From Archangium lipolyticum (GTDB taxonomy: Bacteria; Myxococcota; Myxococcia; Myxococcales; Myxococcaceae), in assembly GCF_024623785.1 (NCBI RefSeq), contig NZ_JANKBZ010000001.1:62001-126000 (forward strand): a stretch of 64,000 nt of DNA. Direction: 5' to 3'. The position numbers and the translations under genes were made by a program. Below are positions 9,359 to 64,000 of this stretch, piece after piece; within the stretch, counting starts at the first letter, position 1; every line of letters starts with the position of its first letter. The notes beneath the pieces were generated by a model, which worked only from the letters and a program-made list of their open reading frames with translations, was not told the origin of the DNA and made no database searches.

Positions 9359-9371
9359 GTTCTTCTCACTT

Positions 9372-9965
9372 TCACTGCCGCGCGAAGCGCTCGAAACGCC
9401 CCGTGTTGGAGTTGAGCTTCCACGCCTGAAAGAACCCGTAGGGGAACGTACCCGCGTCGTTGCGTGAGCCGATGATCACCAGCGTCTCGCCTTCGAGAGC
9501 CGCTCGCTCGGCGATGGGCATCGCGTCGACTACGCCGCTGCCGAGCGACGCGATGAACGCGGGACCGTCTGCAAAGTCGGGTCGGTAGCAGAAGACGATG
9601 CGCAGGCCGCACCGCACGCACAGCACCTTCCAGAGCGAGTACGCGACAAGATCCGCGTCGGCCGAGTTCTCGAGCTCGCACACCGCAACCGGGAAGCGCC
9701 AGCCCGCGCCCGACGCCAAGAACGCCATCACGTCCTGCGAGAGGTACTCGTTGCGCTTTACCGGCAGCACCGTGCAGCGATGGCCCTTGCCGGCCGCCGC
9801 CCAGCCGAGCGCCTCGAACGAGCGCACGACGACGCCCGTCAGCGTCCCGGTCCACCGCGTGAGGTCGGAGCGCACGGACGCATCCCGGAGCTCGTAGGCG
9901 GCGAGCCGGTCGTCTCCGAGCGTCGCGAAGAACTGCGACATCCACTTGGTGGCCAGTGCGATCAT
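9372..9965 (-). CDS. Unknown 197-residue protein of the DUF499/DUF1156 operon
   Basis: The start codon overlaps the stop of methylase A (ATGA at 9962-9965), and DUF499 follows 13 bp downstream, so it is firmly embedded in the operon. The first ~60 residues are helical. The core RNEYLSQDVMAF (71-82) followed by VAVCELEN (93-100) and a helix AYSLWKVL resembles the order of a PD-(D/E)XK-type nuclease core: Asp78, Glu97, Glu99, beta-strand then helix. However, the usual lysine is replaced by Glu99, so catalysis is doubtful. It occupies the place that other small proteins, such as DUF3780, hold in comparable clusters. Function is not established; a nuclease-like or adaptor role is inference. Confidence 0.7.
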   Translation of the reverse strand: MIALATKWMSQFFATLGDDRLAAYELRDASVRSDLTRWTGTLTGVVVRSFEALGWAAAGKGHRCTVLPVKRNEYLSQDVMAFLASGAGWRFPVAVCELENSADADLVAYSLWKVLCVRCGLRIVFCYRPDFADGPAFIASLGSGVVDAMPIAERAALEGETLVIIGSRNDAGTFPYGFFQAWKLNSNTGRFERFARQ

Positions 9966-15748: not shown

Positions 15749-17214
15749 TTCTTCGACGCCGCCTCTCGGAGTAGTTCAACGAGGGGACCGAACGAGACGC
15801 TCGCGGCGTACGCGCGACATGCTTCCCCCACGAGGAACGCACGATCACGGCCGAGTCGTTCTGCCAAACGGTCGAACCACCCGTGGTGGTCACCGCCCGC
15901 GAGCTCAGCGAGGAAAGAATCCACGTCCAAGCCGTAAGTGGTCGACCAGAGCTGCTTGACCGCCGCGTTGCCGAAGACTTCTTTCTCCGGCGGCATCGTG
16001 CCCGGGAGCTTGAACACGAAGTTTGTCGGCTCCTCTTTGGAGTCGGCATCGAGTACTGCGGCGATTCGGAGACCGGCCTCCCGCAGCGTCCGCATCGCAG
16101 CCGCGATGGCGTCCTTGCCACCACCCACGCTCTGGTCCTTGTCGTCACGGTAGCCGCCAATGACGATGGCGGTGGTCTTCAACAGCTCCGGTTCCGCCTT
16201 TGCCAGCATCTCGGTGAGAATGGCTGCGGCGACATCGTCTTCGACGAGAACCCGCAGAGCCTTGTCGTGACCATCAGTTAGGACGCTTGCGACCTGCGCC
16301 GAGGCCAAGCCCGGAAGCACTCGGACGCCCGTGCCACCATCTCGCACAATCAACATACGTGACACCTGAGGCAGCGCACGAAGCAGGTGCTCGCTATGCG
16401 TGCTGAGAAGGATCTGGTGGCCCTTTCTGATCGCGAGGTCGACGAGGTACTCGCCAAAACGGAACTGCGCAGACTGGTGCAGCGAAATCTCCGGCTCCTC
16501 AAGGAGGATGAGTGACTTCGGAGGTTGCGCCTCCAACCTGTCGATCAGGTTGTGAACGCGACATTCGCCGAAACCCATGTGATTTTCGGAATAGACGACG
16601 TGCCCGCGACCGGCGGCCAGGATTGAGCCCGACCGAGTCTTGAGCGACACATCGGCGCGCTCGACACGATCATAGTGCGTGCCGAGAACCTTACCTACCG
16701 CCTTCGATACATCGACCGCACACGGGGTCCGGGTCCCCACAACCAATCGACCGGCTTGACGGAAGTAGAACCCCTGCTCCTCAGCACGGGGCGGGAATTC
16801 GGCGGCGCCGAGAAAGAGCACTTCCCGCTCATCACGCTTCCTGTAGTCAGACCAGCGGTTGGTGCGTCGCGACAACGAAAGTGCGCGCTCTTTAGCGTCG
16901 GACTGCCACGTGCTGATATTCAGACGCGCGGTCGTAGCGAACGGCGACGGGTCGAGCTGTCCAACCGCGAAGAAGTCGCGGAGCTGGTAGCCTCTCTTCC
17001 CCTGCCGGTAGCTGCACGCAGCCAACTGGAGCAAGGTCGTTTTGCCAGTTCCGTTCGGGCCGCAGAACGCCGTAACAGGGCTGCGAAACTCAAGAATCGA
17101 GTTGGCGTGGAGTCGGAAGCCACGCACCTCAAGCCGCGTGATGACGTTGCCAAAGTTCGCGTGGCGATGGTTCGACTCAAACTTCTTTTGAAGCGTGTTT
17201 CTCGGGTCAGCCAC
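15745..17214 (-). CDS. OLD-family ATPase with TOPRIM-like nuclease domain
   Basis: A 489-residue ABC/SMC-like ATPase. Walker A is GPNGTGKTT (52-60), Walker B is LILLEEPE (235-242) with the ABC-type double Glu, and the H-loop is STHSEH (271-276). The C-terminal third has the OLD TOPRIM pattern, LVEDDVAA (Glu325) and VLDADSK (Asp389, Asp391). This is the same domain order as phage P2 OLD and Gabija GajA, nucleases that act in phage defence. In this operon it is the clearest effector candidate; that is inference. The start is GTG at 17214, overlapping the helicase stop by eight bases (GTGGCTGA), a typical translational coupling. Confidence 0.88.
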   Translation of the reverse strand: MADPRNTLQKKFESNHRHANFGNVITRLEVRGFRLHANSILEFRSPVTAFCGPNGTGKTTLLQLAACSYRQGKRGYQLRDFFAVGQLDPSPFATTARLNISTWQSDAKERALSLSRRTNRWSDYRKRDEREVLFLGAAEFPPRAEEQGFYFRQAGRLVVGTRTPCAVDVSKAVGKVLGTHYDRVERADVSLKTRSGSILAAGRGHVVYSENHMGFGECRVHNLIDRLEAQPPKSLILLEEPEISLHQSAQFRFGEYLVDLAIRKGHQILLSTHSEHLLRALPQVSRMLIVRDGGTGVRVLPGLASAQVASVLTDGHDKALRVLVEDDVAAAILTEMLAKAEPELLKTTAIVIGGYRDDKDQSVGGGKDAIAAAMRTLREAGLRIAAVLDADSKEEPTNFVFKLPGTMPPEKEVFGNAAVKQLWSTTYGLDVDSFLAELAGGDHHGWFDRLAERLGRDRAFLVGEACRAYAASVSFGPLVELLREAASKK

Positions 17215-20200
17215 GTGCAGCCTCCAGGATCGCCTTTGCCGGCACGTGGTAGTGCTCGACCTTCACGACGGGCTCCCATCCGAGCGTCGCCGGGTTCTGA
17301 ATTGTGTTGAGCTTCGGCGTGGTCGCACAGTCGAAGACGACGTAGAGCCAGAAGTCCTCGCCGAGCCGTTGCGCGGTCCGGTACTCGTTCGCGGTGAGCG
17401 CGACCTCGCCGGTGCCCGAGCGACCCTTCACCTCGATGAAGCGGGCCTGCACGAAGACGCCCGGCTCGGTCGGGTGCGGTCGCTTCGAGAGCAGATCGTA
17501 GCCTCGGTTTTCGTTCTCGACGCTCTCGACGATCCAGCCGCGAGCGCGCTCGTGTTCCATCGCGACCTGCACGGCGATCTTCTCGATCTCTGGGTCGCTC
17601 ACCATCGGCGCGATGCTCGGCGCCTCGCGCTCGGGATGCGGCAGCACCCAGGCACGCCCGAGGTGCTGAACGTCGCCGATGGAGCAGTGGCGCTCCATCT
17701 CGAGCTCCTGGCGGCGGCGTTCGAGGCGCGCGTTCAACTCGTCGAGATGGTCCTCGGCCTGCTTGATGTTGCCTTCGAGGCCCGGGATGTTCGCGCCCTC
17801 GATGCGCCGGCCCTCCAGTTCGGCGAAAGTGAGCTGCTGCCGGTCGATGAGCGCGTTGAGGGAGATCTCGATGTGCTCGCGCACGATGGTGTTTTCCTTC
17901 GTGCGCTGGTCAGCAACCTCGGCGAGAAACGGGTTGAGCGCGTGCTGGACGAGGTGGACCTCGACGAGGTCGCGTTCGGGCAGCCCCGACAGGCTCGGTG
18001 CGTGCGTTCCCTTCGCGGCTGGGATGAGGTCGAGGAAGAGCGTGGGTTGGCGCAGCGTCAGCGTGCCGTCGGGATCGGCGCGCACCACGAAGAGCTTCTT
18101 GTGCAGCGTGTTGCCCCGGCCGTCCTTGATGGACGCGGCGAAGACGTCGAGTCGGTACGGCGCCTTCGCGTGCAGGTCCCAGAGCACCGCGCCCCTGCGA
18201 AGGTCGTCGCCCACACGGTCCGCGACGTCGCTCCGCACCACCTCGAAGAGCGGGTGGCCAGGCGTCACCCACTCCAGCGTCGCGTCGTCGCCCAGCAGGC
18301 GCTTGTCGAACACGACGCGCTGGTACTCGCGACCGAGCTTGCCGAAGCGGGGCTCGAGGCGCTCGCCGATGGCGTTGAGCGTCTTCGGCACCTTGCCGAC
18401 GCGGTACACATGGTCCTTACCGCGCACAGGCGACGGGTGGACACCCGCGATGGGGCCCGCCGAGGTGAAGAAGTCCTCGACCACTTCGGGGACGAGGCGC
18501 CGCTCCTTGGCCTCCACCGACTTGCCGACGAGGGCCGATAGGTTCAGCTCCTTCTTCGCGAGTCCCTCGAGCGTCGCTCCCGTAATGCGCTTGAAGCGCT
18601 CCGGGTCGATGTCCTTCACGATGCGGTCGGCGATGCTGCTCTCACTGAGCCGCTTCGCGTACATCTCGCGGAACATCTTCTCGAGCGAGTTGGACGGCAG
18701 CATCTCGCCGACGACGTCGAACACCTTGTCGGTGCCGAGCTCGTCTTTGATCTCGGCGAGACGCATCAGCAGCTTCTCGAGCACGCGCCCCTCGCGCGTG
18801 TTGACCGCCGCGAAGTTGAAGATGAGGCAATCCTTCTGCTGGCCGTAGCGGTGGATGCGGCCCATGCGCTGCTCAAGGCGAACGGGATTCCACGGGATGT
18901 CGTAGTTGATCATCAACCAACAGAACTGGAGGTTGATGCCTTCTCCGGCGGCCTCGGTAGCAACGAGCACCTGGCAGTCCTCGCGGAACTCGCGCTCGGC
19001 GTAGATGCGCGTGTTCGGCGTGTCGCGGTCGCCGATCGGCATGCCGCCGTGGATCTGAGTGCAGGAGAGGCCCCACTCCCGCAGCTTGCCGAGCGGGCGT
19101 CCGTCGCGGCCGTCGCCTGCGAGGTAGTCGAGCGTGTCCTTGTGCTCGGTGAACACGAGGAGCTTCATCCTCGGGTCCTTGAAGATCTGCTGCTCGTTCA
19201 GGACCTGCTTCAGCTTGTTGAGCTTCGACTCGACCTCGCGTTTTTCGAGCGCGCGCGCCTGATCAACGAGCTTGTCGAGGCGTTGGATCTCCTCGCGAAG
19301 CGCGATGGGGTCGACGGCGAGGACCGTCTCCTCCGCGCCCTGCATGATCTTCGCCTGCTCATCCTCAGGCAGGTCGTCGAAGTCGTCGGGCAGCTTCCGG
19401 TCGATCTGCTCCTGGCGATGGCGCTCGGGGTCGTCGAGGATCTTGCGGCGCTTGTCGCGCATGCGCTCAAGGCTGCGGCGTACGGCGTAGATGCTGGAGG
19501 CGAAGCGGCGTTGCAGCATCGCCATCTGGAACGAGAGGATGTTCGCCTGCACGTTCTCGGCAGCGGCGGCCTGAATCGACTGGTCTTCGACGTAGCGCGT
19601 GAGCGCGTCATAGAAGTCGAACTCGTCGCCATCGAGCTCGAACCTGGTCGTGCGCACGTCGCGGTTGGTGAAAAGCTTTTTCACCTCGCCGGTCTCGGGA
19701 TCAGGGAAGGCGACCAGAGCCTCCTTCAAGCGGCGTAGGTAGAACGGCGCCTCATGCCGGCGCATCGCCTCTTCGAGGCTCTTCACGTCGCCGTACACGT
19801 CACGGTCGAGGAGGCTCAGGAAGAGGCGGAAGTTCTCCGGGTCACCCTTGTGCGGCGTCGCCGTCATCAAGAGGAAGTGGTCGGTGCGCTGCGACAGCGC
19901 CTCGCCGATCTGGAAGGCGAGCGTCTTCTTGTCGGCGCTGTAGGCACTCATCTTGTGCGCCTCGTCGACGATGACAAGGTCCCACTGGGAGCGCAGCAGG
20001 CTCTCCTTGGCGTCCTCGACACGGGAGATCCACGAGACCGAGGTGACGACCTGGTTGTGTTCCTGCCAGGGGTTCTGGCCATATTGCGTGCGCAGCACCT
20101 CGCCGCGCATCACGTCGAACTGCTCGCGGAACTTGTCCTTCAGCTCGCGCTGCCACTGGAACGTAAGGTTCGCGGGCGCGACGATGAGCGTGCGCTTCAC

Positions 20201-20644
20201 GAGGCCACGGATCTTCAGTTCCTTGAGGAGCAGGCCCGCCATGATCGTCTTGCCGGCGCCGGGGTCGTCGGCGAGCAGGAAGCGGATGCGCGGAAGCTTC
20301 AGGAAGTAGTCGTAGACGGCCTCGAGCTGGTGGGGCAGCGGATCGACACGCGCGATGGAGAGGGAGAAGTACGGGTCATGCTCGTAGGCAAGCCCGAGAC
20401 GCGCGGCCTCGACGCCCAGCTTGAAGTGGAGCGGATTGCCGTCGAAGGGCTCGGTCTCCGGCGTTGCTTCGAGGAGCTTGAGCTGATCGGAGTGCAGGAC
20501 TCGCTGGTGGACATGCCCCGTCTTTTGCCCGGCGCCCGTGAGCTTCACGACATCGCCAAGAGGCGTGACGACCAGAACCTCGACGGGTTCGGGCAGCATT
20601 GGGCCGCGGACGATGATGCCGGGCTTCAGGTCAGCGGCGTTCAT
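17207..20644 (-). CDS. SNF2-type superfamily 2 helicase with DUF3883-like C-terminus
   Basis: A 1145-residue ATP-driven DNA translocase/helicase. Motif I is DDPGAGKT (126-133), motif II is DEAH (227-230), motif III is TATPHKG, and motif VI is GRIHRYGQ near 620, the SNF2 signature. A long charged helical region follows the second lobe. The last ~130 residues (GYDLLSKRP, FIEVKGRSGTGEVALTANEY) match DUF3883, a PD-(D/E)XK-like fold whose E-V-K triad residues are present. It resembles DrmD and other defence-island SNF2 proteins, but no DrmA/B/C partners are present. The start ATG overlaps the preceding stop (ATGA, 20641-20644). Confidence 0.92.
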   Translation of the reverse strand: MNAADLKPGIIVRGPMLPEPVEVLVVTPLGDVVKLTGAGQKTGHVHQRVLHSDQLKLLEATPETEPFDGNPLHFKLGVEAARLGLAYEHDPYFSLSIARVDPLPHQLEAVYDYFLKLPRIRFLLADDPGAGKTIMAGLLLKELKIRGLVKRTLIVAPANLTFQWQRELKDKFREQFDVMRGEVLRTQYGQNPWQEHNQVVTSVSWISRVEDAKESLLRSQWDLVIVDEAHKMSAYSADKKTLAFQIGEALSQRTDHFLLMTATPHKGDPENFRLFLSLLDRDVYGDVKSLEEAMRRHEAPFYLRRLKEALVAFPDPETGEVKKLFTNRDVRTTRFELDGDEFDFYDALTRYVEDQSIQAAAAENVQANILSFQMAMLQRRFASSIYAVRRSLERMRDKRRKILDDPERHRQEQIDRKLPDDFDDLPEDEQAKIMQGAEETVLAVDPIALREEIQRLDKLVDQARALEKREVESKLNKLKQVLNEQQIFKDPRMKLLVFTEHKDTLDYLAGDGRDGRPLGKLREWGLSCTQIHGGMPIGDRDTPNTRIYAEREFREDCQVLVATEAAGEGINLQFCWLMINYDIPWNPVRLEQRMGRIHRYGQQKDCLIFNFAAVNTREGRVLEKLLMRLAEIKDELGTDKVFDVVGEMLPSNSLEKMFREMYAKRLSESSIADRIVKDIDPERFKRITGATLEGLAKKELNLSALVGKSVEAKERRLVPEVVEDFFTSAGPIAGVHPSPVRGKDHVYRVGKVPKTLNAIGERLEPRFGKLGREYQRVVFDKRLLGDDATLEWVTPGHPLFEVVRSDVADRVGDDLRRGAVLWDLHAKAPYRLDVFAASIKDGRGNTLHKKLFVVRADPDGTLTLRQPTLFLDLIPAAKGTHAPSLSGLPERDLVEVHLVQHALNPFLAEVADQRTKENTIVREHIEISLNALIDRQQLTFAELEGRRIEGANIPGLEGNIKQAEDHLDELNARLERRRQELEMERHCSIGDVQHLGRAWVLPHPEREAPSIAPMVSDPEIEKIAVQVAMEHERARGWIVESVENENRGYDLLSKRPHPTEPGVFVQARFIEVKGRSGTGEVALTANEYRTAQRLGEDFWLYVVFDCATTPKLNTIQNPATLGWEPVVKVEHYHVPAKAILEAARG

Positions 20645-53486: not shown

Positions 53487-53570
53487 GCTTCCCGTTCTCA
53501 GGAGCACCCCAAGATTAACAGGTAATATCCTGAGATGAGGTCGCTGAAAAGCACGGCGTGCTGACCCTCC

Positions 53571-54467
53571 CTATGGGAACATCATGCGTGGAAAGGTAAC
53601 GACGCGCAGGCCCTCATCCCAGAGCTTCAGCTTCAAATAGCCTCGCGCCTGGGTCCTCTTGGCATTGGCTTCCACGATGACCACGCTGGCCCGGTCGGAC
53701 ACAATCGCCTCCTCCTGACGAATCTTCAAACCCGTCAGTTCCTCTCCATCGGAGTCAATCAGGGTTCCCCCCACCGTCGTCCAAGGCTCCGAGCCGGAAT
53801 TTCTCAGCCAGATCTCCGCGGCGATCGTCGACTCGCCGCGATAGCTGAGGCCCCTGTCGAAGTAAAGAATCCCCCCCAACTCCGAGAACGCTTTCGGGTC
53901 GAGTTCCTTGGCTTGGATTCCATGGATCCCCACCGCCTCGTTGGCAACGAGGCTCCCGAGCTCCCTTATCCGCTCGAACCGAGCCCGCAGCCGCCGGTTA
54001 TCCTCGCGGAGTTGCCGATTCTTCGCACGCTCCTGCTCCACCTCTTGCTGAAAGGATTCCCGGGTGCGCTTGTCCCGAAAGACCTCCACCTGATGGGTGG
54101 CCCTCCCTGAGTGAGCCACCAATGTGAAAGCGATGGACCCCTGGGCCACTCCGCCCCCGAAATGAACGACGAACCGCAGCCGCTCCCCAGACACCATATC
54201 TTGGGGTGGTAACAGCGTGAGAAGCTGGCGTCCACGCACCACCTCCTCGAAACGGACTTCGTCCTGCAGTTCCACGACGACAGGAGCATCGAAGAGGAAT
54301 CCCGTCATGAGCCCTGGGCTGATGCATACCTCGCGTGTCGCCTCGGACGAAAGTGATAGCTCGATACGCTGCACCTCCGCACATGAGCCAACAGTGGATG
54401 GCTCCACGACGGGCGAGCCCCGAAGAAGCACCAGAGCCAGCATGGCAGTAAAGGATGTAGGGAGCAC
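53571..54467 (-). CDS. DUF2381-family myxobacterial protein
   Basis: A 298-residue exported protein with an N-terminal hydrophobic stretch (TSFTAMLALVLLRGS). Strand-rich EVQRIELSLSSEATREVCIS leads into a coiled-coil (SFQQEVEQERAKNRQLREDN) and a C-terminal beta domain (GTLIDSDGEELTGLKIRQEEAIV). These are the marks of DUF2381/TIGR02268, a family nearly restricted to myxobacteria and usually found next to Ser/Thr kinases. Here the kinase gene follows 22 bp downstream. Its function is unknown; a role as envelope ligand or partner of the kinase is inference. GTG start at 54467. Confidence 0.85.
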   Translation of the reverse strand: MLPTSFTAMLALVLLRGSPVVEPSTVGSCAEVQRIELSLSSEATREVCISPGLMTGFLFDAPVVVELQDEVRFEEVVRGRQLLTLLPPQDMVSGERLRFVVHFGGGVAQGSIAFTLVAHSGRATHQVEVFRDKRTRESFQQEVEQERAKNRQLREDNRRLRARFERIRELGSLVANEAVGIHGIQAKELDPKAFSELGGILYFDRGLSYRGESTIAAEIWLRNSGSEPWTTVGGTLIDSDGEELTGLKIRQEEAIVSDRASVVIVEANAKRTQARGYLKLKLWDEGLRVVTFPRMMFP

Positions 54468-54489
54468 GGCTGCGGTCTCCGGTGCGTGG

Positions 54490-56157
54490 CTACTCGAAGC
54501 GCCTCACCGACATGACATGGAGGTTGTTGATGACGCGGACCTTCCTACCCATGCGCTCGGGCTGCATCGCGATACCCGTTCCGCTGGACGAGGTCACCTC
54601 CAAGCAGACCGGAGCAACCTCCCCACCCGGCAGGCGAATCCGCGTAAAGCGGCCATAGACACGACCGTTCCCGAAAAGCACCTTGCCATACATGGGGGTC
54701 CCCTCCGGGAGTCCCTTCCAGCCCCTGTCGACAATGGCGGTGACGTCGCCCTCCGCCAGATACAAATCAACAGGAGGACGGAAGAACTCGATGAACACGG
54801 GACCATAATCCCCCTCTTCGATACCGAATGGCTCGAGGGTATCCGCGGAGCCAGCCGGGCACGCCTCGGGCGGAGGGGGCGGACGCTGCTGCGGGCTGCT
54901 CACGCAGGCGGAGGTGGAGACGCAGAAGGAAACAGCCAGGGAACGGACCGTCTTGGACTTGAGCACCGGGTCTTCCTCGCTTGACGTCGCACTGGCGACG
55001 GGCGCGGGGGTGAATGACTTCGGAAGTTCCGCGCCGTGCTCAACCTCTCCCGTCATGCCGGTGGGCGCCAATTCCTGGCAGGAGTTGGCCTCTGACGTCG
55101 GCTGAGAGGGGGTCGACTCCTCGCGTGGGGTAGGCTCGGGGGAGTCGTGCCACGGGACGAGCGCGGAGAGAGCGAGACCGACAGCCCAGGGCCATCTCAT
55201 CGAACGAGAACGAGCCGCCGTTGACGGACGAGGAACGAGGCGCTTCTCTCGTTTGCCTCCAGGGAAGAGCGGCGCGTGCCATGCACCATCCGCGCGGGCC
55301 AGTACCTCCTCCAGCGCCTGCCCGAGCGCTGTGGCGTCCGCATACCGGGACTCGGGCTGTTTCTCCAGCATCCGCAGGCACAGCTCGCCCAGCGCCGGGG
55401 GAACGCGCGGGTTGAGCACATGAGGCGCCACCGGATTCTCATGGAGGATGGCGTGCATCATCCGCGCGTCGTTCCGATCACCGAAGGGCAGCTCGCGCGT
55501 GAGGAGGAAGTAGAGCGTAACGCCCAGCGCCCACAGGTCGTCCCGTGGCCCGGACGGGTACCACTCGCCCTCCCACTCCCGGGCGAAGCGCCATGCCTCG
55601 GGGCTGCGGTACTCCCGGGTACCTGGCGGCAGCCGCATCGTCAGGCGTTGCGCGCCCTCGTATGCGGCAGCGCCGAAGTCCACCAGCACCGGCTGCCCGT
55701 CCGACTCGCGCATGACGATGTTGGCTTCCTTCACATCCCGGTGCACCACGCCCTCGGCATGCACCGCCGCGAGAGTGCGCGCGAGCGGCAACAACACCTG
55801 ACGCACCAGCTCGAGCGCGGAGGGGTTCTCGTTCCTGGCCCACACGTCCAGCGGGTCACCCTTGACCAGCTCCAGCACCAGCACGAGGAAGTGCGGCTCG
55901 TCTTCCGGCCAGAGGCAGTACCCGCGGAAGCCGACGACATTGGGGAGCCGCGCGCGGCGCAACGCATCCACCTCGCGGTCCCCCCGTTCCCCCATGGGCA
56001 CCAGCTTGAGGGCGAAGGGCTTCCCGTCCCGGGTGGCCTCGTAGACGATGCCGAAGCTACCGCTGGCGATCTTCCCCTCGATGGTAAAGCCCGCCACGCG
56101 CTCGCCAGGGGCGAATTCCAGCCAGGGCCCCTCGCCCGCGCCAATCGAATCCTTCAT
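54490..56157 (-). CDS. Membrane-anchored Ser/Thr protein kinase
   Basis: A 555-residue Hanks-type kinase. The glycine loop is GKIASGSFGIVYEA, the ATP lysine is Lys51 (FALKLV), the catalytic loop is HRD at 139-141 (VVHRDVKEANIV), DFG is at 160-162 and REYRSPE is the activation-segment anchor. A transmembrane helix (321-336, RWPWAVGLALSALVPW) follows. The extracytoplasmic part is Pro-rich with a beta domain seen in many myxobacterial kinases. ATG 56157 has GGAGGTG seven bases upstream. The gene is transcribed first, before DUF2381 or with it; the intergenic space is 22 bp. Confidence 0.93.
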   Translation of the reverse strand: MKDSIGAGEGPWLEFAPGERVAGFTIEGKIASGSFGIVYEATRDGKPFALKLVPMGERGDREVDALRRARLPNVVGFRGYCLWPEDEPHFLVLVLELVKGDPLDVWARNENPSALELVRQVLLPLARTLAAVHAEGVVHRDVKEANIVMRESDGQPVLVDFGAAAYEGAQRLTMRLPPGTREYRSPEAWRFAREWEGEWYPSGPRDDLWALGVTLYFLLTRELPFGDRNDARMMHAILHENPVAPHVLNPRVPPALGELCLRMLEKQPESRYADATALGQALEEVLARADGAWHAPLFPGGKREKRLVPRPSTAARSRSMRWPWAVGLALSALVPWHDSPEPTPREESTPSQPTSEANSCQELAPTGMTGEVEHGAELPKSFTPAPVASATSSEEDPVLKSKTVRSLAVSFCVSTSACVSSPQQRPPPPPEACPAGSADTLEPFGIEEGDYGPVFIEFFRPPVDLYLAEGDVTAIVDRGWKGLPEGTPMYGKVLFGNGRVYGRFTRIRLPGGEVAPVCLEVTSSSGTGIAMQPERMGRKVRVINNLHVMSVRRFE

Positions 56158-56303
56158 CCAGCCCACCTCCATCCGAAATCCGTGGAGGAGACCGCTCCGG
56201 TGAGGCGCCCGTCCAGAACCTGTGGGAGAGGGCCAGGGCACACGCCCTACCCTACATCCTGTCCGCCTGGTGCTCATGTCCGCCTGGCGTCAAACCCACG
56301 ACG

Positions 56304-56396
56304 CGGGAGCCTGATGGAGACGGGGGCGCCCCCTCGCATTCGTGGTAGGAGGAGCGAGTCCCCCTGGAGGTGCACTCTGTCGGAGCCCCGCAACCG
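56304..56396. repeat. Direct repeat copy 1, duplicated 5' end of the helicase gene
   Basis: About 93 bp match 58024-58116 in the same orientation at an offset of exactly 1720 bp, with scattered mismatches and no net length change. The shared GGAGCGAGTCCCCCTGGAGG is the region around the helicase ribosome-binding site. Here it joins directly to a fragment of the GNAT gene. With its partner it brackets the trio relic and the Imm52-like/lipoprotein pair. Confidence 0.85.
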
Positions 56397-56398
56397 CT

Positions 56399-56585
56399 CT
56401 CCCGCCCTGCGAGCCCTGGCCGCCGCTTGGACGCTGAGGACGGGCTGGAGAACCAGGGCTCACCGCGCGTGCGAGGCCCGGCGAACCGGATGTGCACGCA
56501 CGTGCTGGCCTTCGCCATCGGCGGCGCCCCGGTGCCCACCTGCCCGCCCGAGGTACCGGTGTACGTCGACCTCGCCTTCCTCTGA
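56399..56585 (+). pseudogene. GNAT gene relic (3' end with internal deletion)
   Basis: 56399-56436 matches 49769-49806, then jumps to a match of 49964-50113, so ~157 bp are deleted. The resulting C-terminus (GGAPVPTCPPEVPVYVDLAF L) and stop are retained. There is no start and no N-terminal GNAT part. It is a leftover of a second copy of the GNAT/Rieske/methyltransferase trio. Confidence 0.85.
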
Positions 56586-56596
56586 GGGCCCCGCGA

Positions 56597-56664
56597 CTAC
56601 AACCGGTAGGCGACGCGGCGCCGCCGCTCCACCTGCTGGGGAGAGCGCTCTCCGGTGAGCCGCC
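56597..56664 (-). pseudogene. Rieske oxygenase gene relic (last ~22 codons)
   Basis: The segment matches the 3' end of the Rieske gene (50125 to about 50193) with a few substitutions, including the TAG stop (56597-56599). It keeps the RRRVAYRL-type C-terminus. No catalytic part is present. The break with the next block lies within 56663-56668, where the two parental sequences share GCCG/GCGG-ATGG. Confidence 0.8.
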
Positions 56665-56744
56665 GATGGGAACTGCACTCGCTGCGGCTGCCTGGCACTG
56701 AGGTGCGCCTGTCGCTGCTCAACGCCATCCTCGGCTGGCGATGA
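56665..56744 (+). pseudogene. Methyltransferase gene relic (last ~26 codons)
   Basis: The segment matches 51853-51932, the 3' end of the methyltransferase gene, with several substitutions. It ends with the same LLNAILGWR C-terminus and TGA stop. The SAM-binding part is gone. About 1.65 kb of the parental trio between the Rieske tail and this point is missing. Confidence 0.8.
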
Positions 56745-56759
56745 AATCCGCCCGTGAAA

Positions 56760-57332
56760 TCAAGGCAAGGATGCAGGCTCGCTCGTGAAAAATGCATGGA
56801 ACAAAGTGGTATTGGGCGGCTCGATCGGCTCGACATAGAGCGGGATGGGGGTATCGGCGATCTCACGAGGAAGCGCACTCACCCCGAAAGTTGCTTCGAT
56901 TTTCCTGGAAACAACATCCGCGGGGTGGCGCATTTCGGCTGGGAGAGGCTCGAAAAATGCTCTGGGATTGTGTCGCTTCTTTTCAATCCGTGAGTACTCC
57001 ACCCCGTAAACAGTGTAAACGGGCGCGAGAATGCTGACACAGCCAACGACAGCGAAGCGGCGCGTGTTGGACAGGTCGCCCACGGGCGAGTATGCGGCGC
57101 AACGAAAGCAGGCATCGGGAGTCGCGGTCGCATCGCCAATCGTGAACCCGGGAAGCTCCTTCTTGAGCTCATCCAGGAACGCCCACCACCGCTCAATCTT
57201 CTTCAGCTCTTCTTCCCAGAGGCCGCAGAGCCGCTCATGCTCTGGGCTGCTGTCGGATCTGAAATGATAAATCTTGTCAGCGCGCCAGTAGTTCCGTGCA
57301 ATAGCCAGCAGCTGCTCTGATGTGAAGGACAT
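56760..57332 (-). CDS. Imm52-like immunity protein (candidate)
   Basis: A 190-residue soluble protein. It opens TSEQLLAIARNYWRADKIYHF RSD and SPEHERLCGLWEEELKKIERWWAFLDELKKELPGFTIGDATATPDACFRC. As remembered, this start, the W-rich helix and the F-T-x-G-D-A-T-A-T-x-D-A-C-F-R-C block characterise Imm52, an immunity family of polymorphic toxin systems common in myxobacteria. It lies five bases after the stop of a small lipoprotein gene on the same strand, so the two form an operon. The cognate toxin domain is not seen here. The immunity role is inference. Confidence 0.65.
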   Translation of the reverse strand: MSFTSEQLLAIARNYWRADKIYHFRSDSSPEHERLCGLWEEELKKIERWWAFLDELKKELPGFTIGDATATPDACFRCAAYSPVGDLSNTRRFAVVGCVSILAPVYTVYGVEYSRIEKKRHNPRAFFEPLPAEMRHPADVVSRKIEATFGVSALPREIADTPIPLYVEPIEPPNTTLFHAFFTSEPASLP

Positions 57333-57337
57333 GGAGA

Positions 57338-57802
57338 TTAGCGGCCGGTCCTCGCGGATTCAGCCTTGGGATGGCATGCCGTCTTCACGCGCGATCCAGC
57401 GATTGCGGCATTTAGCATCAAATGGAATGAGTTCTTGAAGCTTTCGCACGCGACACCAAGAGGCGTCTCAAGGGTTGTGGCCGTCAAGGCATGTTGCGCT
57501 GCACTGTTTGCGCAGTTCGCGGCGATGCGCTGGGCCAGTGAGAGGGAAATGAACCCATCCTCCTCGGTCTTTATCGGCATATCGACCCCCATCCGGCAGA
57601 TGATTGCGTCCCCCGTATCGCTCTGGATTGGCAAGTGGAGACAGGCGGCACGCCACCCACCCGGGTCATTGCCGCGCTGCTCAACGATCGTGACAAACCG
57701 AAAGTGCCTCGGCTCGAGTTGCCCCTCGACCAGGGTAACGGACCTCGGTGCCGCACACCCCGACAGAAGCAAGAGCAACAAGGGGAGATTGCAAATAGAC
57801 AT
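57338..57802 (-). CDS. Small lipoprotein upstream of the Imm52-like gene
   Basis: A 154-residue protein. A signal peptide with lipobox LLLSGC (about 9-14) is followed by a short mature domain with conserved-looking Cys residues (AACLHL, IICRMG, ANCANS, VACES, TACHP). It could be a small toxin or helper lipoprotein for the Imm52-like neighbour, or an unrelated envelope protein; no family is recognised. ATG 57802 is chosen over GTG 57808 because a GAGG site lies seven bases upstream of it. A good sigma-70 promoter precedes it (57852-57880). Confidence 0.65.
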   Translation of the reverse strand: MSICNLPLLLLLLSGCAAPRSVTLVEGQLEPRHFRFVTIVEQRGNDPGGWRAACLHLPIQSDTGDAIICRMGVDMPIKTEEDGFISLSLAQRIAANCANSAAQHALTATTLETPLGVACESFKNSFHLMLNAAIAGSRVKTACHPKAESARTGR

Positions 57803-57851: not shown

Positions 57852-57880
57852 ATTACAAAAACTGCTTACAACCATGTCAA
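57852..57880 (-). promoter_or_regulatory. Sigma-70-type promoter of the lipoprotein/Imm52-like operon
   Basis: On the minus strand TTGACA (57880-57875) is a perfect -35 box. TGTAAT (57857-57852) is a -10 box with one mismatch, and the spacing is exactly 17 bp. Transcription would begin near 57845, about 40 bases before the ATG at 57802. It stands out because most gaps in this window lack a consensus promoter. Confidence 0.65.
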
Positions 57881-58023
57881 GCCGTCGAGCCCAGCAAGGT
57901 GCTGGAAACGAATGGAAAGGTTGGGTTCCCTTTCAAGGCCGATTGCAAGGCGGGCGCTATCGTTCATGATCCGACGAAACTCCCGCTCCCAGTACGTCGG
58001 GCACGGGGGTTCAACACGAGGCT

Positions 58024-58116
58024 CGGGAGCCTGACGAAGGCGAGGGCGCTCCCTCTCATTCGTGATAGGAGGAGCGAGTCCCCCTGGAGGTGCGCCCTGT
58101 CGGAGTCCCACAACCG
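58024..58116. repeat. Direct repeat copy 2, native 5' end of the helicase gene
   Basis: This is the counterpart of 56304-56396. It contains the GGAGG ribosome-binding site (58086-58090) and the first possible codons of the helicase gene, so it is the likely source copy. The 1720-bp segment between the starts of the two repeats holds the trio relic and the Imm52-like/lipoprotein operon. Confidence 0.85.
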
Positions 58117-58129
58117 CTTCCTCGAGAAG

Positions 58130-61100
58130 ATGCTCGATCGGCTGTACGCCTCGCTCGCCTCGGGCCCGAGCATCAACTGCCGTCCCCACAACAGCCGCCA
58201 GCGCGTGGACCTCACGCTGCTGAGCCGCCTGGATGGAACCTCGCCCCAGGCCGTGCTGGCCGGACTCCTCGGAGAAAAGGGCGCGGCGAAGCTCTCCGTG
58301 CGCGCCACGCCTCCCGCGAAGGATGCCGCGGACGCTCCCTCCAAGCGTGAGGACGACGAGCGGCAGGCACTGCTGCGCAAGCTGTCCACCATCGCCGAGG
58401 ATGCCCGCACCTTCGAGCAGGACACCGGCGCCCAGGTGCTGCACGTGGGCTATCCCCTGCTCCACCTGCCTCCCGACGCCAAGGACAAGCGGGGCTTCGC
58501 CAACACCCGGCGCATCCTCGCCCCCATCGCCTTCATCCCCGTGCGTCTCACCCTCAAGAAGGGCCGCACGCCGGGCGTGGAGCTGGAGGCCGCCGCCGAC
58601 GGCGTGGAGCGCGTCATGCCCAACACCGCCCTCATCGCCTGGGTGGAACGGCAGACGGGCAAATCCCTCGGGGCGCTCTTCGCCGATGAGCAGGGCGTCG
58701 AGCCCTGGCGCGAGATCAACGAACTGGCCGCCGCCGTGGCCAGGGCCCTGGAGCTGCCCGCTCCCGCTCCCTTCACACCGGAGACGCCCCTCTCCCCCAC
58801 CCCGCGCTCCGAGGACGAGTCCACCACTGGAGCCTCCATCCTCCCGTGCGCCGTGCTCGGCCTCTACCCGCTGTCCAACCAGAGCCTCGTGGACGACATG
58901 CGGGCCCTCGTGGACGGCGAGCCCGTCCAGGGTCCCATCGAGAGCTTCCTGCGCGTGGGCGTCTCCCTCGGGGGCACGGGCACTCCCAGGCCGGAAGCGG
59001 CGTCCCAGGGCACCTGGCGCGCGGGGGAGGACCGGCTCGTCTCCCATGCGGATCCCTGCCAGGCGCGAGCGGTGCGGCTCGCGCGCAGCACCCGGGGCCT
59101 CGTGGTCCACGGGCCTCCGGGCACGGGCAAGTCCCAGACGATCGCCAATGCCATCGGAGACCACCTGGCGCGCGGCGAGCGCGTCCTGCTCGTCTGTGAC
59201 AAGCGCACCGCGCTGGACGTGGTGAAGCACCGGCTGGAGCACCTCGGCCTGGGCTCCCTCTGCGCGGTGGTGCACGACGCGCAGCGCGACCAGCGCGAGC
59301 TCTACCTCGGCATCCGCGAGCAACTCGACAACCTGCCCGAGACCCGGGGCAACCCCGCCGCCCAGGCCGAGCTCTCGCGCGTGGACACCGAGCTGCAGAC
59401 GCTCCACGACGAGCTGTCCTCGGCCGAGCGCGCCCTCTCCGAGCGTCCCGCCGGAGGCACCGAGCCCTCCTTCCACGAGCTGGTGGGCCAGTGGCTCGGC
59501 CAGGAGGCGCCCGAGTCCCTGGCGCGTGCGACGGAGAGCCTCGGCACCTTCCGCCTCGCCGATGCGCGCCCGCACGAGCGCGAGGTGCGCGAGGTGCTGG
59601 ATCGCGCCGTGAAGGAGGGCTACCCGGACAACCCCTGGCGCACCGCGCTGGGCGCCGAGCTGAAGGACTACCTCTCCACGCCGCTCGCCACGTACCGCGA
59701 GCGGATGGCGTCCACCGTGGAGGCCGCGCGCGAGGCGGATGCGCGGTCCTCACCGGACGTACCGGCCTTCTCTCCCTCGGGAGACGTGGTGGCCGAGGGC
59801 CGGGCCCGCGCCGCGCTCGCCGACAAGCTGGAGCCGGTGCTGAAGGACGCGGCCCCCGAGACGCTGGCGCGGTGGATCTCCGCCACGCCCGAGGCCGTGC
59901 AGGCGGCGAAGACCCAGCTGGAGGGACTGGCGCCGCAGGTGCGGGTGTTGAGCGAGGGGCCGCTGGACGCGGAGCTGGCGCTCGTGCACCGCTCGGAGCC
60001 GCAGGGCCTGGGTGTGCTGGGACAGTGGATGGCGTTCCTCGCGGCCTGGATGGAGGTAGCGCGCAAGTGGTACCGCTTCCTCTTCTTCTTCACCCGGAGA
60101 TCGAAGGCCGTTGAGGTGCTGCGGCGCTTCGGGCTCACCCTGGGGATCGAGGCCGTCGAGCGCGTCTCCCGCTTCCTCAACGGCGTGCGCGCGCGAGCCC
60201 TGCTCACCGACTATCACCAATCGGTCCTCTCTCCGGGCGCCACCGGGACGCTCGCGGACGACGCGCTGGCCCGTGGCCTGCGGACCCATGCCGCGCTGTT
60301 CGAGGTGTTGCTGACATTGGAGAGCGAGCCGACGCTCGCCTCCTGCCGGCAGATGGTGCGCGAGTCCCTGCGCGGCGATGAAGCGGCACGGGCACGCCTG
60401 CTCGCGGGCCTGCGCCAGTCGGCCGCGCGCGCCGAGGACGTGGCCGGGCTGGAGACGCGGCTGGCCGAGGTGGGCCTCTTCTCGTCCGCCTGGTGCGTGG
60501 CACAGGGCCGGGCGTTGCGAGCGGGCGCGCAGGCGCAGCCGCTGCTCTCGTCGCTCGCGGCGCGGCTGTCCAGCGTGGAGGGACTGCTGAGGATCCAGTC
60601 GGTGGTGGCCGGCCTGCCCGCGTCGCTCGGCGCGGCGGCCGAGAAGCTGGCCCTGGCTGGCGCGGACCCCGAGGACGGCTGGCGCGCGGTGCGCAAGACG
60701 GTGCTGGCCTCGGAGATCTCCGCGCGGGTGCGGGAGAATCCAGTGCTGCAGCACATCGACGCGGATCGCCACCACGCGAGCCAGACGCGCCACCGCGCCC
60801 TGGAGGCGAGGAAGCGCGAGCTGGTGCGCGACGTCATCCTGCACCGCTGGACGGAGCGCCAGCGCGAGCGCCTGCTGGCCTCCACGGGCGGGCGGCTCAA
60901 CGGGCTCGGGGCGGAGCTGCGCCGCCGCCTGCTGCTGCGGGGCGAGCGCGCGTTGCGGGTGCGTCAGGTCATCGCCGCGGGCGCGGGAGCCGAGGGAGGC
61001 GATCCGCTCTTCGACATGCGGCCGGTGTGGATGGCGAGCCCGCAGACGGTGGCGCAGATCTTCTCCCGCCGCGAGCTCTTCGACGTGGTCATCTTCGACG

Positions 61101-62470
61101 AGTCCTCGCAGTGCCGTCTGGAGGAGGCGCTGCCGGTGCTGACGCGGGCGAAGCGGGTGGTGATCGCTGGAGACCCCAAGCAGCTGCCGCCCACGCGCTT
61201 CTTCGAGTCCGCCGTGGTCCAGAGCCAGGAGGAGCTGGACGCCGAGGACGAGCAGGGCCTCTTCGAGGATCAGCAGTCCGAGGTGGAGGATCTGCTCGGC
61301 GCGGCGCTGAACCTGGAGATCGACCAGTGCTACCTGGACGTGCACTACCGCTCGCGCAACGCGGATCTCATCGGGTTCAGCAACGAGCACTTCTATGACT
61401 CGCGGCTGCAGGCGATTCCGGGGCACCCGTCCAACCGGGTGGAGCACGCGCCGCTGCGGCTCGTCCATGCGGGAGGCCTGTACGAGAAGCGGGTGAACGT
61501 CGTGGAGGCGCGCGCCGTGGGAGCGCTGGTGAAGGAGCTGCTCTCGCGGCCGGAGCCGCCGTCCATCGGCGTGGCGTGCTTCAACCTGTCGCAGCGCGAC
61601 GCCATCACCGAGGTGCTGGAGGAGCTGGCGGCGGCGGACGCGGACTTCGCGGCGAAGCTGGCGGCGGCGCGGACGCGGCGTGGCGAGGGCTCGTTCGAGG
61701 GCCTCTTCGTGAAGAACCTGGAGAACGTCCAGGGAGACGAGAGGGATCACATCATCATCAGCACCACGTATGGCCCGGACGCGAAGGGGCGCTTCTACCG
61801 GCGCTTCGGTCCGTTGGGGAGCGCGGGCGGAGGGCGGAGGCTCAACGTGCTGGTGACGCGGGCGCGGCAGATGGTGCACCTGGTCACGTCGATTCCTCGC
61901 GAGGTGTACACGGCGCTGCCTCCCGTGGAGAGCGGCCGGAAGCCGAACGGAGGCTGGCTGCTCTTCGCCTACCTCCAGTACGCCGAGCGGCTCGCGGAGG
62001 AGTACGCGCGCGAGTCCGGACAACCCGAGGAGGCCACCCAGGAGCGGCCGGAGCCGGTGGTGCGCGAGCGGGAGACGGAGGCGGGCTCGGTGTTCGCGCG
62101 GGCGCTGGCGGAGGGCCTGGCGCGCACGCACGGCGTGTCCTCGGACGTGCACTGGGGCAACGACGGCTTCTGCGTGGACGTGGCGCTGCACCACCCCCGC
62201 CGGGCCGGGGACGTGACGGTGGGCGTGCTGTGCGACGGCGCGCGCTACCCGAAGGCGGCGGATCCGGTGGAGTGGGATCTGTTCCGCACGGCCATGCTGG
62301 AGGGCCAGGGCTGGAAGCTGGTGCGGCTGTGGTCGCCGCACTTCTTCCGCGATCCCGAGGGCGCGACGGCCAGGGTGCTCCAGGCGGCCAGCGAGCAGAT
62401 CGCCCGCCAGCCTCCGGTGACGGCGTCCGCCGCGAGCCAGGGAGAGCCGGCCCGCCGCGTCATCAACTGA
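58130..62470 (+). CDS. DUF4011-helicase-nuclease protein (Hhe-like defence candidate)
   Basis: A 1446-residue protein. The N-terminal ~250 residues (INCRPHNSRQRVDLTLLSRL, ILAPIAFIPVRLTLKKG) fit DUF4011. Superfamily 1 helicase motifs follow: Walker A VVHGPPGTGKSQ near 325, DESSQC near 985, GDPKQLPPT, and NVQGDERDHIIIS near 1200. A C-terminal Vsr/REase-like domain (FCVDVALHH, GVLCDGARY, WKLVRLWSPHFF) ends it. This layout matches the single-gene Hhe defence type (DUF4011-helicase-Vsr), to my knowledge. The start is uncertain: ATG 58130 is conventional, but CTG 58097 lies six bases after GGAGG and extends the protein by 11 residues. Confidence 0.85.
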   Translation: MLDRLYASLASGPSINCRPHNSRQRVDLTLLSRLDGTSPQAVLAGLLGEKGAAKLSVRATPPAKDAADAPSKREDDERQALLRKLSTIAEDARTFEQDTGAQVLHVGYPLLHLPPDAKDKRGFANTRRILAPIAFIPVRLTLKKGRTPGVELEAAADGVERVMPNTALIAWVERQTGKSLGALFADEQGVEPWREINELAAAVARALELPAPAPFTPETPLSPTPRSEDESTTGASILPCAVLGLYPLSNQSLVDDMRALVDGEPVQGPIESFLRVGVSLGGTGTPRPEAASQGTWRAGEDRLVSHADPCQARAVRLARSTRGLVVHGPPGTGKSQTIANAIGDHLARGERVLLVCDKRTALDVVKHRLEHLGLGSLCAVVHDAQRDQRELYLGIREQLDNLPETRGNPAAQAELSRVDTELQTLHDELSSAERALSERPAGGTEPSFHELVGQWLGQEAPESLARATESLGTFRLADARPHEREVREVLDRAVKEGYPDNPWRTALGAELKDYLSTPLATYRERMASTVEAAREADARSSPDVPAFSPSGDVVAEGRARAALADKLEPVLKDAAPETLARWISATPEAVQAAKTQLEGLAPQVRVLSEGPLDAELALVHRSEPQGLGVLGQWMAFLAAWMEVARKWYRFLFFFTRRSKAVEVLRRFGLTLGIEAVERVSRFLNGVRARALLTDYHQSVLSPGATGTLADDALARGLRTHAALFEVLLTLESEPTLASCRQMVRESLRGDEAARARLLAGLRQSAARAEDVAGLETRLAEVGLFSSAWCVAQGRALRAGAQAQPLLSSLAARLSSVEGLLRIQSVVAGLPASLGAAAEKLALAGADPEDGWRAVRKTVLASEISARVRENPVLQHIDADRHHASQTRHRALEARKRELVRDVILHRWTERQRERLLASTGGRLNGLGAELRRRLLLRGERALRVRQVIAAGAGAEGGDPLFDMRPVWMASPQTVAQIFSRRELFDVVIFDESSQCRLEEALPVLTRAKRVVIAGDPKQLPPTRFFESAVVQSQEELDAEDEQGLFEDQQSEVEDLLGAALNLEIDQCYLDVHYRSRNADLIGFSNEHFYDSRLQAIPGHPSNRVEHAPLRLVHAGGLYEKRVNVVEARAVGALVKELLSRPEPPSIGVACFNLSQRDAITEVLEELAAADADFAAKLAAARTRRGEGSFEGLFVKNLENVQGDERDHIIISTTYGPDAKGRFYRRFGPLGSAGGGRRLNVLVTRARQMVHLVTSIPREVYTALPPVESGRKPNGGWLLFAYLQYAERLAEEYARESGQPEEATQERPEPVVRERETEAGSVFARALAEGLARTHGVSSDVHWGNDGFCVDVALHHPRRAGDVTVGVLCDGARYPKAADPVEWDLFRTAMLEGQGWKLVRLWSPHFFRDPEGATARVLQAASEQIARQPPVTASAASQGEPARRVIN

Positions 62471-62473
62471 GGC

Positions 62474-64000
62474 TCAATTCACCTGCACCTTGGCGACCTG
62501 ACGGCCGCCGAGGAAGTCCTCCACGCCGTGGGCGATGGCCTGGGCCACGTCGTCCTGGTACTTCTCCGAGGCCAGCCGCTGCTCCTCCTCGGAGTTGGAC
62601 AGGAAGGAGGCCTCCACGAGGATGGCCGGCATCTTCGCGCCGAGCAGCACGTAGAAGAGCGCCTCCTTGGTGCCCAGATCCTTCACGCCGGAGTAGCTGC
62701 TGGACAGGTGGCTCACGAGGTTCTTCTGCACCCGGGTGGCCAGCCGCGTGGACTCCTCGGTGTTGGCCTTGGTGGCCAGGTCCGCGAGGATGAACTGCAG
62801 GTCGCTGATGCCCTTCTCCGAGGAGGCGTTCTCGCGCGCCGCCAGGCGGATGGAGTAGCGGTCCGCCGAGGTGTTGAGCGTGTACGTCTCGATGCCCCGC
62901 AGCTTCGAGGTGTGCGCCGAGTTGCAGTGGATGGAGATGAACAGGTCGCCCTTCATCTCGTTGGCCATGCGCGCGCGCTCCTCCAGCTTCAGGTAGTGGT
63001 CGTCCTCGCGGGTGAGCATCACCTCCAGGCCCCGGTTGCGCAGCTCGTTCGCCAGCTTGCGCGCGATGGCCAGCGTCACGTCCTTCTCCCGGGTGCCCTT
63101 GCGGCCGATGGCGCCGGTGTCGTGTCCGCCGTGGCCCGCGTCGATGACCACCCGGCGCACCTTCAGCCCGAGCTGCTCCGCCAGCGTCAGCTCGGTGCCG
63201 TTGGACGCCTTCGCCACGGCCTTGAGGCGGGCCTGCGCCATCTTCTCGTCCACCGGGGCCGTCACCGGCTTCGCGGGCTCCACCACCGGCTTCGACTCCG
63301 GAACGGGAGCCGGCTGCGGAGCCTGGGCCACCTTGGTGGGCTCCGGCTCGGCTGGCTTGGACAGCTCGACGTGGATCACCGGCACCTGCTCCGCGGGGGC
63401 CTGCTTGTCGACCGGCTGCTTCTCGACCGGGGGCTGCTTCTCGGCCGGGGCCGGCTTGGGGGGCTCGGCCGAGGCGACGGCGGGCCTGGGCTCGGGAGCG
63501 GGCGGCGGCTCCGGAGCGCGAGCCGGTGCCTTGCGCACGGGCGCGGGAGTCTTCGGCGCGGGCAGCAGGGCCAGCAGCGCCTTCAAGTCCTTGGCGCGAT
63601 CTCCCTTCGGGTTGGCCGCGAGGATGCCGTTGAGGACGCGGCGCGCGGACTCGGGCTGATCCAACTGCTCGAAGTAGATGCGCGCGAGCATGTAGGCCGC
63701 GTCGTCCGCGAGCCGGTGCCTCGGGTGGGACTCCACCACGCGCGAGTAGTCGGCGATCGCCGCCTGCTGATCCTCGGGGACGAAGGAGATGCGGCTCAGA
63801 TCGTTGAGCAGCTCCGCGGCCGTGTAGAGGGCCTCCGGAGCCCGCTGGCTCTTGGGAAAGCGGCTGTACACGGACTCGAACTGGTGCGCCACCTTGAGCC
63901 AGTGGTGGCGCAGCTTGCGCCGGGCCGCGTCGTCCTTGAGGGTGTAGTAGGATCGACGCGCCTCCTGGTAGGCGGCCTCGGCCGGATCGCGCTTCGCCTG
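62474..64000 (-). CDS. amiC: N-acetylmuramoyl-L-alanine amidase AmiC-type (5' end beyond the window)
   Basis: At least 508 residues are visible and the gene continues past base 64000. The N-terminal region has TPR-like helices (AHQFESVYSRFPKSQRAPEALYTAAELL), then a long Pro/Lys/Glu-rich linker. The Amidase_3 domain follows: VVIDAGHGGHDTGAIG, the Glu of TREKD, ISIHCNSAH and VEASFLSN, which provide the zinc ligands and catalytic Glu. The enzyme cleaves peptide side chains from peptidoglycan during division. It is convergent with the helicase gene, three bases between stops. Confidence 0.93.
   Translation of the reverse strand, partial: QAKRDPAEAAYQEARRSYYTLKDDAARRKLRHHWLKVAHQFESVYSRFPKSQRAPEALYTAAELLNDLSRISFVPEDQQAAIADYSRVVESHPRHRLADDAAYMLARIYFEQLDQPESARRVLNGILAANPKGDRAKDLKALLALLPAPKTPAPVRKAPARAPEPPPAPEPRPAVASAEPPKPAPAEKQPPVEKQPVDKQAPAEQVPVIHVELSKPAEPEPTKVAQAPQPAPVPESKPVVEPAKPVTAPVDEKMAQARLKAVAKASNGTELTLAEQLGLKVRRVVIDAGHGGHDTGAIGRKGTREKDVTLAIARKLANELRNRGLEVMLTREDDHYLKLEERARMANEMKGDLFISIHCNSAHTSKLRGIETYTLNTSADRYSIRLAARENASSEKGISDLQFILADLATKANTEESTRLATRVQKNLVSHLSSSYSGVKDLGTKEALFYVLLGAKMPAILVEASFLSNSEEEQRLASEKYQDDVAQAIAHGVEDFLGGRQVAKVQVN

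What the first reader, a model, noticed from the sequence alone, without database searches (positions are those of the whole stretch)
58097..62470. Hhe-like single-gene defence candidate with a possible CTG start
The domain order DUF4011, SF1 helicase, Vsr-like nuclease matches a known single-gene anti-phage type. At the 5' end the best ribosome-binding site (GGAGG, 58086-58090) fits CTG 58097, not the first ATG at 58130, and the codons after that CTG are also kept in the duplicated copy at 56376-56396.
Basis: partly seen in the sequence, partly recalled or inferred. Interest (0 to 1): 0.6.

Follow-up and report, generated by a model that had tools for sequence, protein, structure and literature searches.

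The report
CTG-started helicase with an altered nuclease
A large myxobacterial helicase gene related to known anti-phage proteins really does appear to start at the rare codon CTG, and the whole branch it belongs to has replaced key cutting residues of its nuclease end, so it is a relative of the defence protein Hhe rather than a copy of it.

Summary
At 58097-62470 (+), an Archangium-like genome encodes a 1457-aa protein: DUF4011, SF1 (Upf1-like) helicase, Vsr-fold domain.

The CTG start is well supported. At the homologous position 32 Myxococcaceae sequences carry GTG (12), TTG (10) or CTG (10), never ATG, a few bases behind a GAGAGG/GGAGG site. The codons between it and the internal ATG vary mainly synonymously. 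In one relative CTG is the only in-frame NTG codon between a stop and the ATG. The duplicated copy is no independent evidence: it looks like the scar of a tandem duplication.

The Hhe label is only partly right. NCBI's Hhe and ProA models match far below cut-off; PADLOC's best hit is the candidate family PDC-S37. Genuine Hhe has E...D...ECDG..YH...ARDRDR in its nuclease; the window has A...D...LCDG..YP...PVEWD, and the ECD-to-LCD change marks the whole clade (Myxococcota, Planctomycetota, Verrucomicrobiota). Helicase motifs are intact.

The gene is near-fixed in Myxococcus (25/27 genomes) and Archangium (5/6), but absent from most other sampled genera and not found on plasmids or viral contigs.

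Most likely it is a chromosomally settled, weakly translated helicase whose Vsr-fold domain binds, or cuts unconventionally. Defence is plausible but untested.

The parts
58097..62470 (+). CDS, 1457 aa: DUF4011 + SF1B (Upf1-like) helicase + C-terminal Vsr-fold (MTES_1575) domain, starting at CTG
   Evidence: Pfam; start evidence; family alignment
58086..58090 (+). Shine-Dalgarno GGAGG, 6 nt before CTG; matching GAGAGG/GGAGG in the aligned orthologues
58097..58099 (+). CTG start codon (GTG/TTG/CTG in relatives)
58130..58132 (+). Internal ATG (Met12), conserved in Myxococcaceae but CTG in three distant homologues (L047, L052, L058); unlikely to be the start
59111..59134 (+). Walker A GPPGTGKS
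   Evidence: conserved in the family
61097..61111 (+). Motif II DESSQ
62087..62392 (+). Vsr-fold domain with altered active site (WGNDGFCVDVA...GVLCDGARYPK...VEWDLFR)
56286..56398 (+). Diverged copy of the gene's leader and first codons; junction scar of a tandem duplication
62474..63892 (-). Convergent downstream gene, probably an N-acetylmuramoyl-L-alanine amidase (name from the sequence, not searched); downstream of the helicase gene in the four Archangium genomes compared (two genes lie between in L033)

Best explanation
The gene encodes a DUF4011-type SF1 helicase of a distinct clade, translated from CTG 58097. The helicase motor is intact and should move on or unwind nucleic acid with ATP (inferred from motifs). 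The C-terminal domain keeps the Vsr/PD-(D/E)XK fold and three aspartates. It has lost the alpha-A Glu, the Glu of the ECD motif and the His of the YH motif that true Hhe has, so it most likely binds or senses DNA or RNA rather than cutting by the usual mechanism (inferred). It probably serves defence against invading DNA, as its relatives do, but as a settled chromosomal gene rather than a roaming island gene. The use of only weak start codons (GTG, TTG, CTG) suggests that a low protein level is tolerated or selected (inferred).
For: Start: 32/32 NTG with no ATG, conserved ribosome-binding site, synonymous variation between CTG and ATG, no alternative start in L005. The start column has 4 first-base and 0 third-base changes; no other of 197 Leu/Val columns has 3 or more first-base changes and no third-base change. 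Motor: Walker A, DESSQ, GDPKQLPPT, VQGDERD and RRLNVLVTRAR conserved. Active site: LCD against ECD in the clade, direct comparison with annotated Hhe, fold Z 9.3 to I-Bth0305I and 9.1 to an endonuclease-like protein NGO0050. Distribution. Clade monophyletic, 100/100. Variable region on the 5' side, with defence genes in sister species G006 and an empty site in G002.
Against: No experiment shows translation from CTG, helicase activity or defence. D77, D96 and (mostly) D110 of the modelled segment survive and a new acid (WGN[DE]G) has appeared, so an altered but active nuclease is possible. E. coli Vsr itself lacks the ECD glutamate (own knowledge). The start-column test is modest (P about 0.003) and rests on 4 inferred changes.
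Confidence: 0.5

Rival explanations
1. An ordinary Hhe/PDC-S37-type anti-phage nuclease-helicase: the Vsr domain still cuts invading DNA with a rearranged PD-(D/E)XK centre (D77, D96, D110 plus new D/E72).
For: Invariant D77 and D96 and strongly conserved surrounding residues W69, G70, N71, C75, R99, W109; PD-(D/E)XK enzymes often move their catalytic Glu (general knowledge); best PADLOC match is a defence candidate.
Against: Three positions that annotated Hhe and its plasmid relatives keep (alpha-A E, ECD E, YH H) are changed in the window protein, and the ECD glutamate is gone in every clade member with that region.
Confidence: 0.25
2. A housekeeping or genome-maintenance helicase of Myxococcus and Archangium, not defence.
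For: Near-fixed in two genera, fixed synteny within Myxococcus (10 loci compared), chromosomal only, no plasmid or viral copies with full coverage.
Against: Absent from most sampled genera of the family and phylum (4 of 78 genera in the phylum sample), located next to a variable region with defence genes in Archangium G006, and in different places in the two genera. A DUF4011 gene present in every isolate and flanking a defence hotspot is also known in P. aeruginosa (PMC10250203).
Confidence: 0.2
3. The gene starts at ATG 58130, and CTG plus the codons after it are untranslated.
For: ATG 58130 is present in the Myxococcaceae orthologues; standard gene finders do not call CTG starts (general knowledge).
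Against: Synonymous variation and conserved amino acids across the 11-12 codons upstream of the ATG, a ribosome-binding site at the NTG codon, relatives lacking the ATG, and an AF2 model whose first helix (4-21) runs across Met12, at low confidence.
Confidence: 0.07

Closest known systems
PDC-S37 (PADLOC phage-defence candidate)
   Same: Best profile match, 547 bits, best stretch 311-1443 against 287-1350 of 1550
   Different: PDC-S37 is only a candidate; no publication was found in the held library; the nuclease centre of its members was not inspected
ProA anti-phage protein (NCBIfam NF058533)
   Same: Helicase plus Vsr region matches at 576 bits
   Different: Cut-off 1500 not met; model length 1903; window protein 1457 aa
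Hhe (NF042953; e.g. WP_099751964.1)
   Same: DUF4011, SF1 helicase, Vsr domain order; 31% identity over 886-1443
   Different: 415 bits against cut-off 2000; Hhe 1911 aa; Hhe has E, ECD, YH, ARDRDR where the window has A, LCD, YP, PVEWD
DUF4011 gene flanking core defence hotspot 1 of P. aeruginosa (PMC10250203)
   Same: DUF4011 gene present in every isolate, next to a variable defence region
   Different: Sequence not compared here; gamma-proteobacterial
I-Bth0305I catalytic domain (Vsr-like) and NGO0050 endonuclease-like protein
   Same: Fold of the C-terminal domain, Z 9.3 and 9.1
   Different: Single-domain structures; the catalytic set differs (residue comparison from sequence, not coordinates)

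Membership tests
Hhe | DUF4011, SF1 helicase and Vsr-like domain in one protein | tested here: met
Hhe | NCBIfam equivalog NF042953 cut-off (2000 bits) | tested here: not met
   415 bits
Hhe | Nuclease residues of annotated Hhe (alpha-A E, D, ExD, YH, RDRDR) | tested here: not met
   D and D kept; E, E, H and RDRDR replaced; LxD instead of ExD throughout the clade
Hhe | Anti-phage activity | not testable with these tools
   no experiment
ProA (NF058533) | equivalog cut-off 1500 bits | tested here: not met
   576 bits
PDC-S37 | PADLOC profile match | tested here: inconclusive
   Best match, 547 bits, two stretches; PADLOC's own coverage rules not shown
MTES_1575 REase (PF18741) | Pfam gathering score | tested here: met
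   60.7 against 38.2 bits; fold supported
MTES_1575 REase (PF18741) | Glu of the ExD motif seen in canonical members | tested here: not met
   Leu in the clade members aligned
DUF4011 (PF13195) | Pfam gathering score | tested here: met
   38.7 against 22.2 bits
SF1B Upf1-like helicase | Walker A, DExxQ, motif V (QGDE) and motif VI Arg | tested here: met
   IGHMBP2 (SMUBP-2) and Upf1 chains in PDB

The most novel reading that the evidence does not exclude
A clade-wide DUF4011 helicase in which the Vsr-like nuclease was rebuilt (WGN[DE]GFC.D...LCD...W[DE]..R) into a non-cutting or differently cutting nucleic-acid sensor, near-fixed in Myxococcus and Archangium chromosomes and held at low level by a start codon that drifts among GTG, TTG and CTG but is never ATG in the sequences seen.
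Probability: 0.3. Interest if true: 0.6.

Novelty: new variant of a known kind. Interest (0 to 1): 0.45.

Why it matters
It gives a clean comparative case for natural CTG initiation in a long bacterial gene: CTG, TTG and GTG swap at one site among close species, and gene finders that do not consider CTG would miss the first 11 residues. It also warns that a DUF4011-helicase-Vsr hit by domain order need not be an active Hhe-type nuclease, because a whole clade has lost a residue that marks the enzyme.

Tried and rejected
Filing it as Hhe or ProA: rejected on NCBI cut-offs and nuclease residues. Treating the repeat copy at 56377 as support for selection on the CTG: rejected, because gene order in G006 shows it sits at a rearrangement junction; the 91 nt upstream of the CTG are 74/91 identical and the 22 nt from it on 20/22, too short to separate. 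A repeat family: only two copies in the genome. Fold of the DUF4011 part: AF2 model pLDDT 76, no PDB match with E below 0.001; this says little. Viral contigs: no relative found. A wider phylum search failed once and was rerun smaller. Papers: no PDC-S37 paper and no bacterial CTG-start survey found in the held library.

Full report
Observation. The frame is open upstream to GTG 57635, but similarity to sister species G006 (93.8% DNA identity) begins only at 58061. The genome is of the same genus as the Archangium violaceum and A. lansinium records (L033, L040).

Start codon. I aligned 32 Myxococcaceae sequences, including a few duplicate records of the same genome, on the invariant internal ATG. 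Twelve codons upstream (eleven in the window and G006, which lack one codon) stands GTG in 12, TTG in 10 and CTG in 10, never ATG, with GAGAGG or GGAGG a few bases upstream. In L005 a stop lies nine codons upstream and CTG is the only in-frame NTG codon before the ATG; in L010, L013 and L036 a stop lies three codons upstream of GTG. The codons in between vary mainly silently (CTC/CTG/CTT, CGC/CGG/CGA, CCC/CCT, GAG/GAA), as translated DNA does. On a tree of 30 sequences the start column needs four first-base and no third-base changes, whereas Leu/Val codons elsewhere show 451 third-base and 134 first-base changes in 197 columns. By that ratio the chance is about 0.003, and no other Leu/Val column with three or more first-base changes is free of third-base change. 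TTG is only 3.8% of Leu codons in the gene. Several Planctomycetota and Verrucomicrobiota homologues have ATG at or beside the same place, and three have CTG where the window has ATG 58130. The CTG start is therefore shown by comparison, not by experiment; I put it at about 0.9.

The repeat. In G006 the order is [window 47.0-51.9 kb] - [56759-57346] - [57873-58005] - [kinase block 53569-56251] - 24 kb - leader and helicase. In the window the order is kinase block - leader copy - pieces of the 47-52 kb region - [56759-57346] - helicase. A tandem duplication that joined the helicase leader to the upstream block, followed by deletions, explains this. The copy keeps SEPRNR, the form of most orthologues, while the gene itself now reads SESHNR.

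What the protein is. Pfam gives DUF4011, AAA_11/AAA_12 and MTES_1575. The family models for proven systems score far below cut-off: Hhe 415 of 2000 and ProA 576 of 1500. PADLOC's best is PDC-S37, 547 bits, over Hhe, 289. A tree with relatives from the same bacterial family separates the clade with 100/100 support; it holds Myxococcota, Planctomycetota and Verrucomicrobiota.

The nuclease. An annotated Hhe from a Klebsiella plasmid and relatives from Vibrio, Azospirillum and Halalkalicoccus share SxFE...G[FY].IDLA...ECDG..YHS...ARDRDR. The window reads SVFA...GFCVDVA...LCDGARYPK...PVEWD. Every clade member in which this region is present has Leu for the Glu of ECD, and D77, D96, W69, G70, N71, C75, R99, D105 and W109 of the modelled segment (residue 1 = window 61949) are invariant in the 32-row alignment. 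The neighbouring clade (L072, L074, L075) still has ECD. The AF2 model (pLDDT 85) has the PD-(D/E)XK order of elements and matches I-Bth0305I (Z 9.3) and the endonuclease-like protein NGO0050 (Z 9.1). So the fold is kept, part of the catalytic set is lost, and the replacement is conserved. That argues for a retuned domain rather than decay. Non-cutting is my preferred reading but is inferred; Vsr itself lacks the ECD Glu (own knowledge).

Distribution and setting. Orthologues are in 5 of 6 genomes of the window's genus and 25 of 27 of genus g19 (Myxococcus by its named records), plus G080 and G044, and none in most other genera of the family. In a sample of 146 genomes of the phylum, 27 genomes from 4 of 78 genera have it. 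No viral contig was found, and no plasmid record covers 80% of the protein, while Hhe itself is common on Klebsiella plasmids. In Myxococcus the neighbourhood is the same in ten loci; in Archangium the downstream amidase-like gene is constant and the upstream side varies. G002 has the flanks without the gene. In G006 the 24 kb next to it include an MkoB-like PLD protein, a STAND-type ATPase and a WD40-SIR2 protein. This resembles P. aeruginosa, where a DUF4011 gene present in every isolate flanks a defence hotspot (PMC10250203).

Mechanism, shown and inferred. Shown by sequence: motor motifs, fold (predicted), residue replacements, start codon pattern, near-fixation. Inferred: ATP-driven movement on nucleic acid, binding rather than cutting by the C-terminal domain, a defence role, and low expression through weak start codons (CUG complexes are less stable than AUG, GUG or UUG ones in E. 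coli, PMC11497404).

Noticed in passing
window 6554-20644 (-): HMA-type anti-phage operon: HmaC-like ATPase, two tandem HmaB-like methylases, an OLD/HEC-04-like ATPase between, and HmaA-like helicase. The second methylase and the OLD-like gene have lower GC3 (0.67, 0.73) than neighbours near 0.9, suggesting an inserted cassette.
   Followed up: partly
L113:188-9264 (sister species G006, upstream of the orthologue): Three adjacent genes: MkoB-like PLD protein, STAND-type ATPase with weak NACHT match, WD40 protein with C-terminal SIR2 domain; looks like a defence cluster.
   Followed up: partly
L118:14965-15483: A small gene with a weak HIT-domain match sits directly upstream of the helicase in the Myxococcus loci compared (75-94% identity) but was not seen in Archangium; a possible partner.
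   Followed up: no
L156 (Acinetobacter seifertii plasmid NZ_CP061552.1): A DUF4011 protein outside the clade also lacks the ECD Glu (GIIVDGENY) while keeping ARDRDQLR: the Glu may have been lost more than once.
   Followed up: no
L037 (BNCN01000008.1): Record titled Comamonas sp. KCTC 72670 carries Myxococcus-type sequence and gene order; the title is probably wrong.
   Followed up: no
window 56436-56749: Fragments duplicated from the 49-52 kb part of the window, remains of the tandem duplication.
   Followed up: yes
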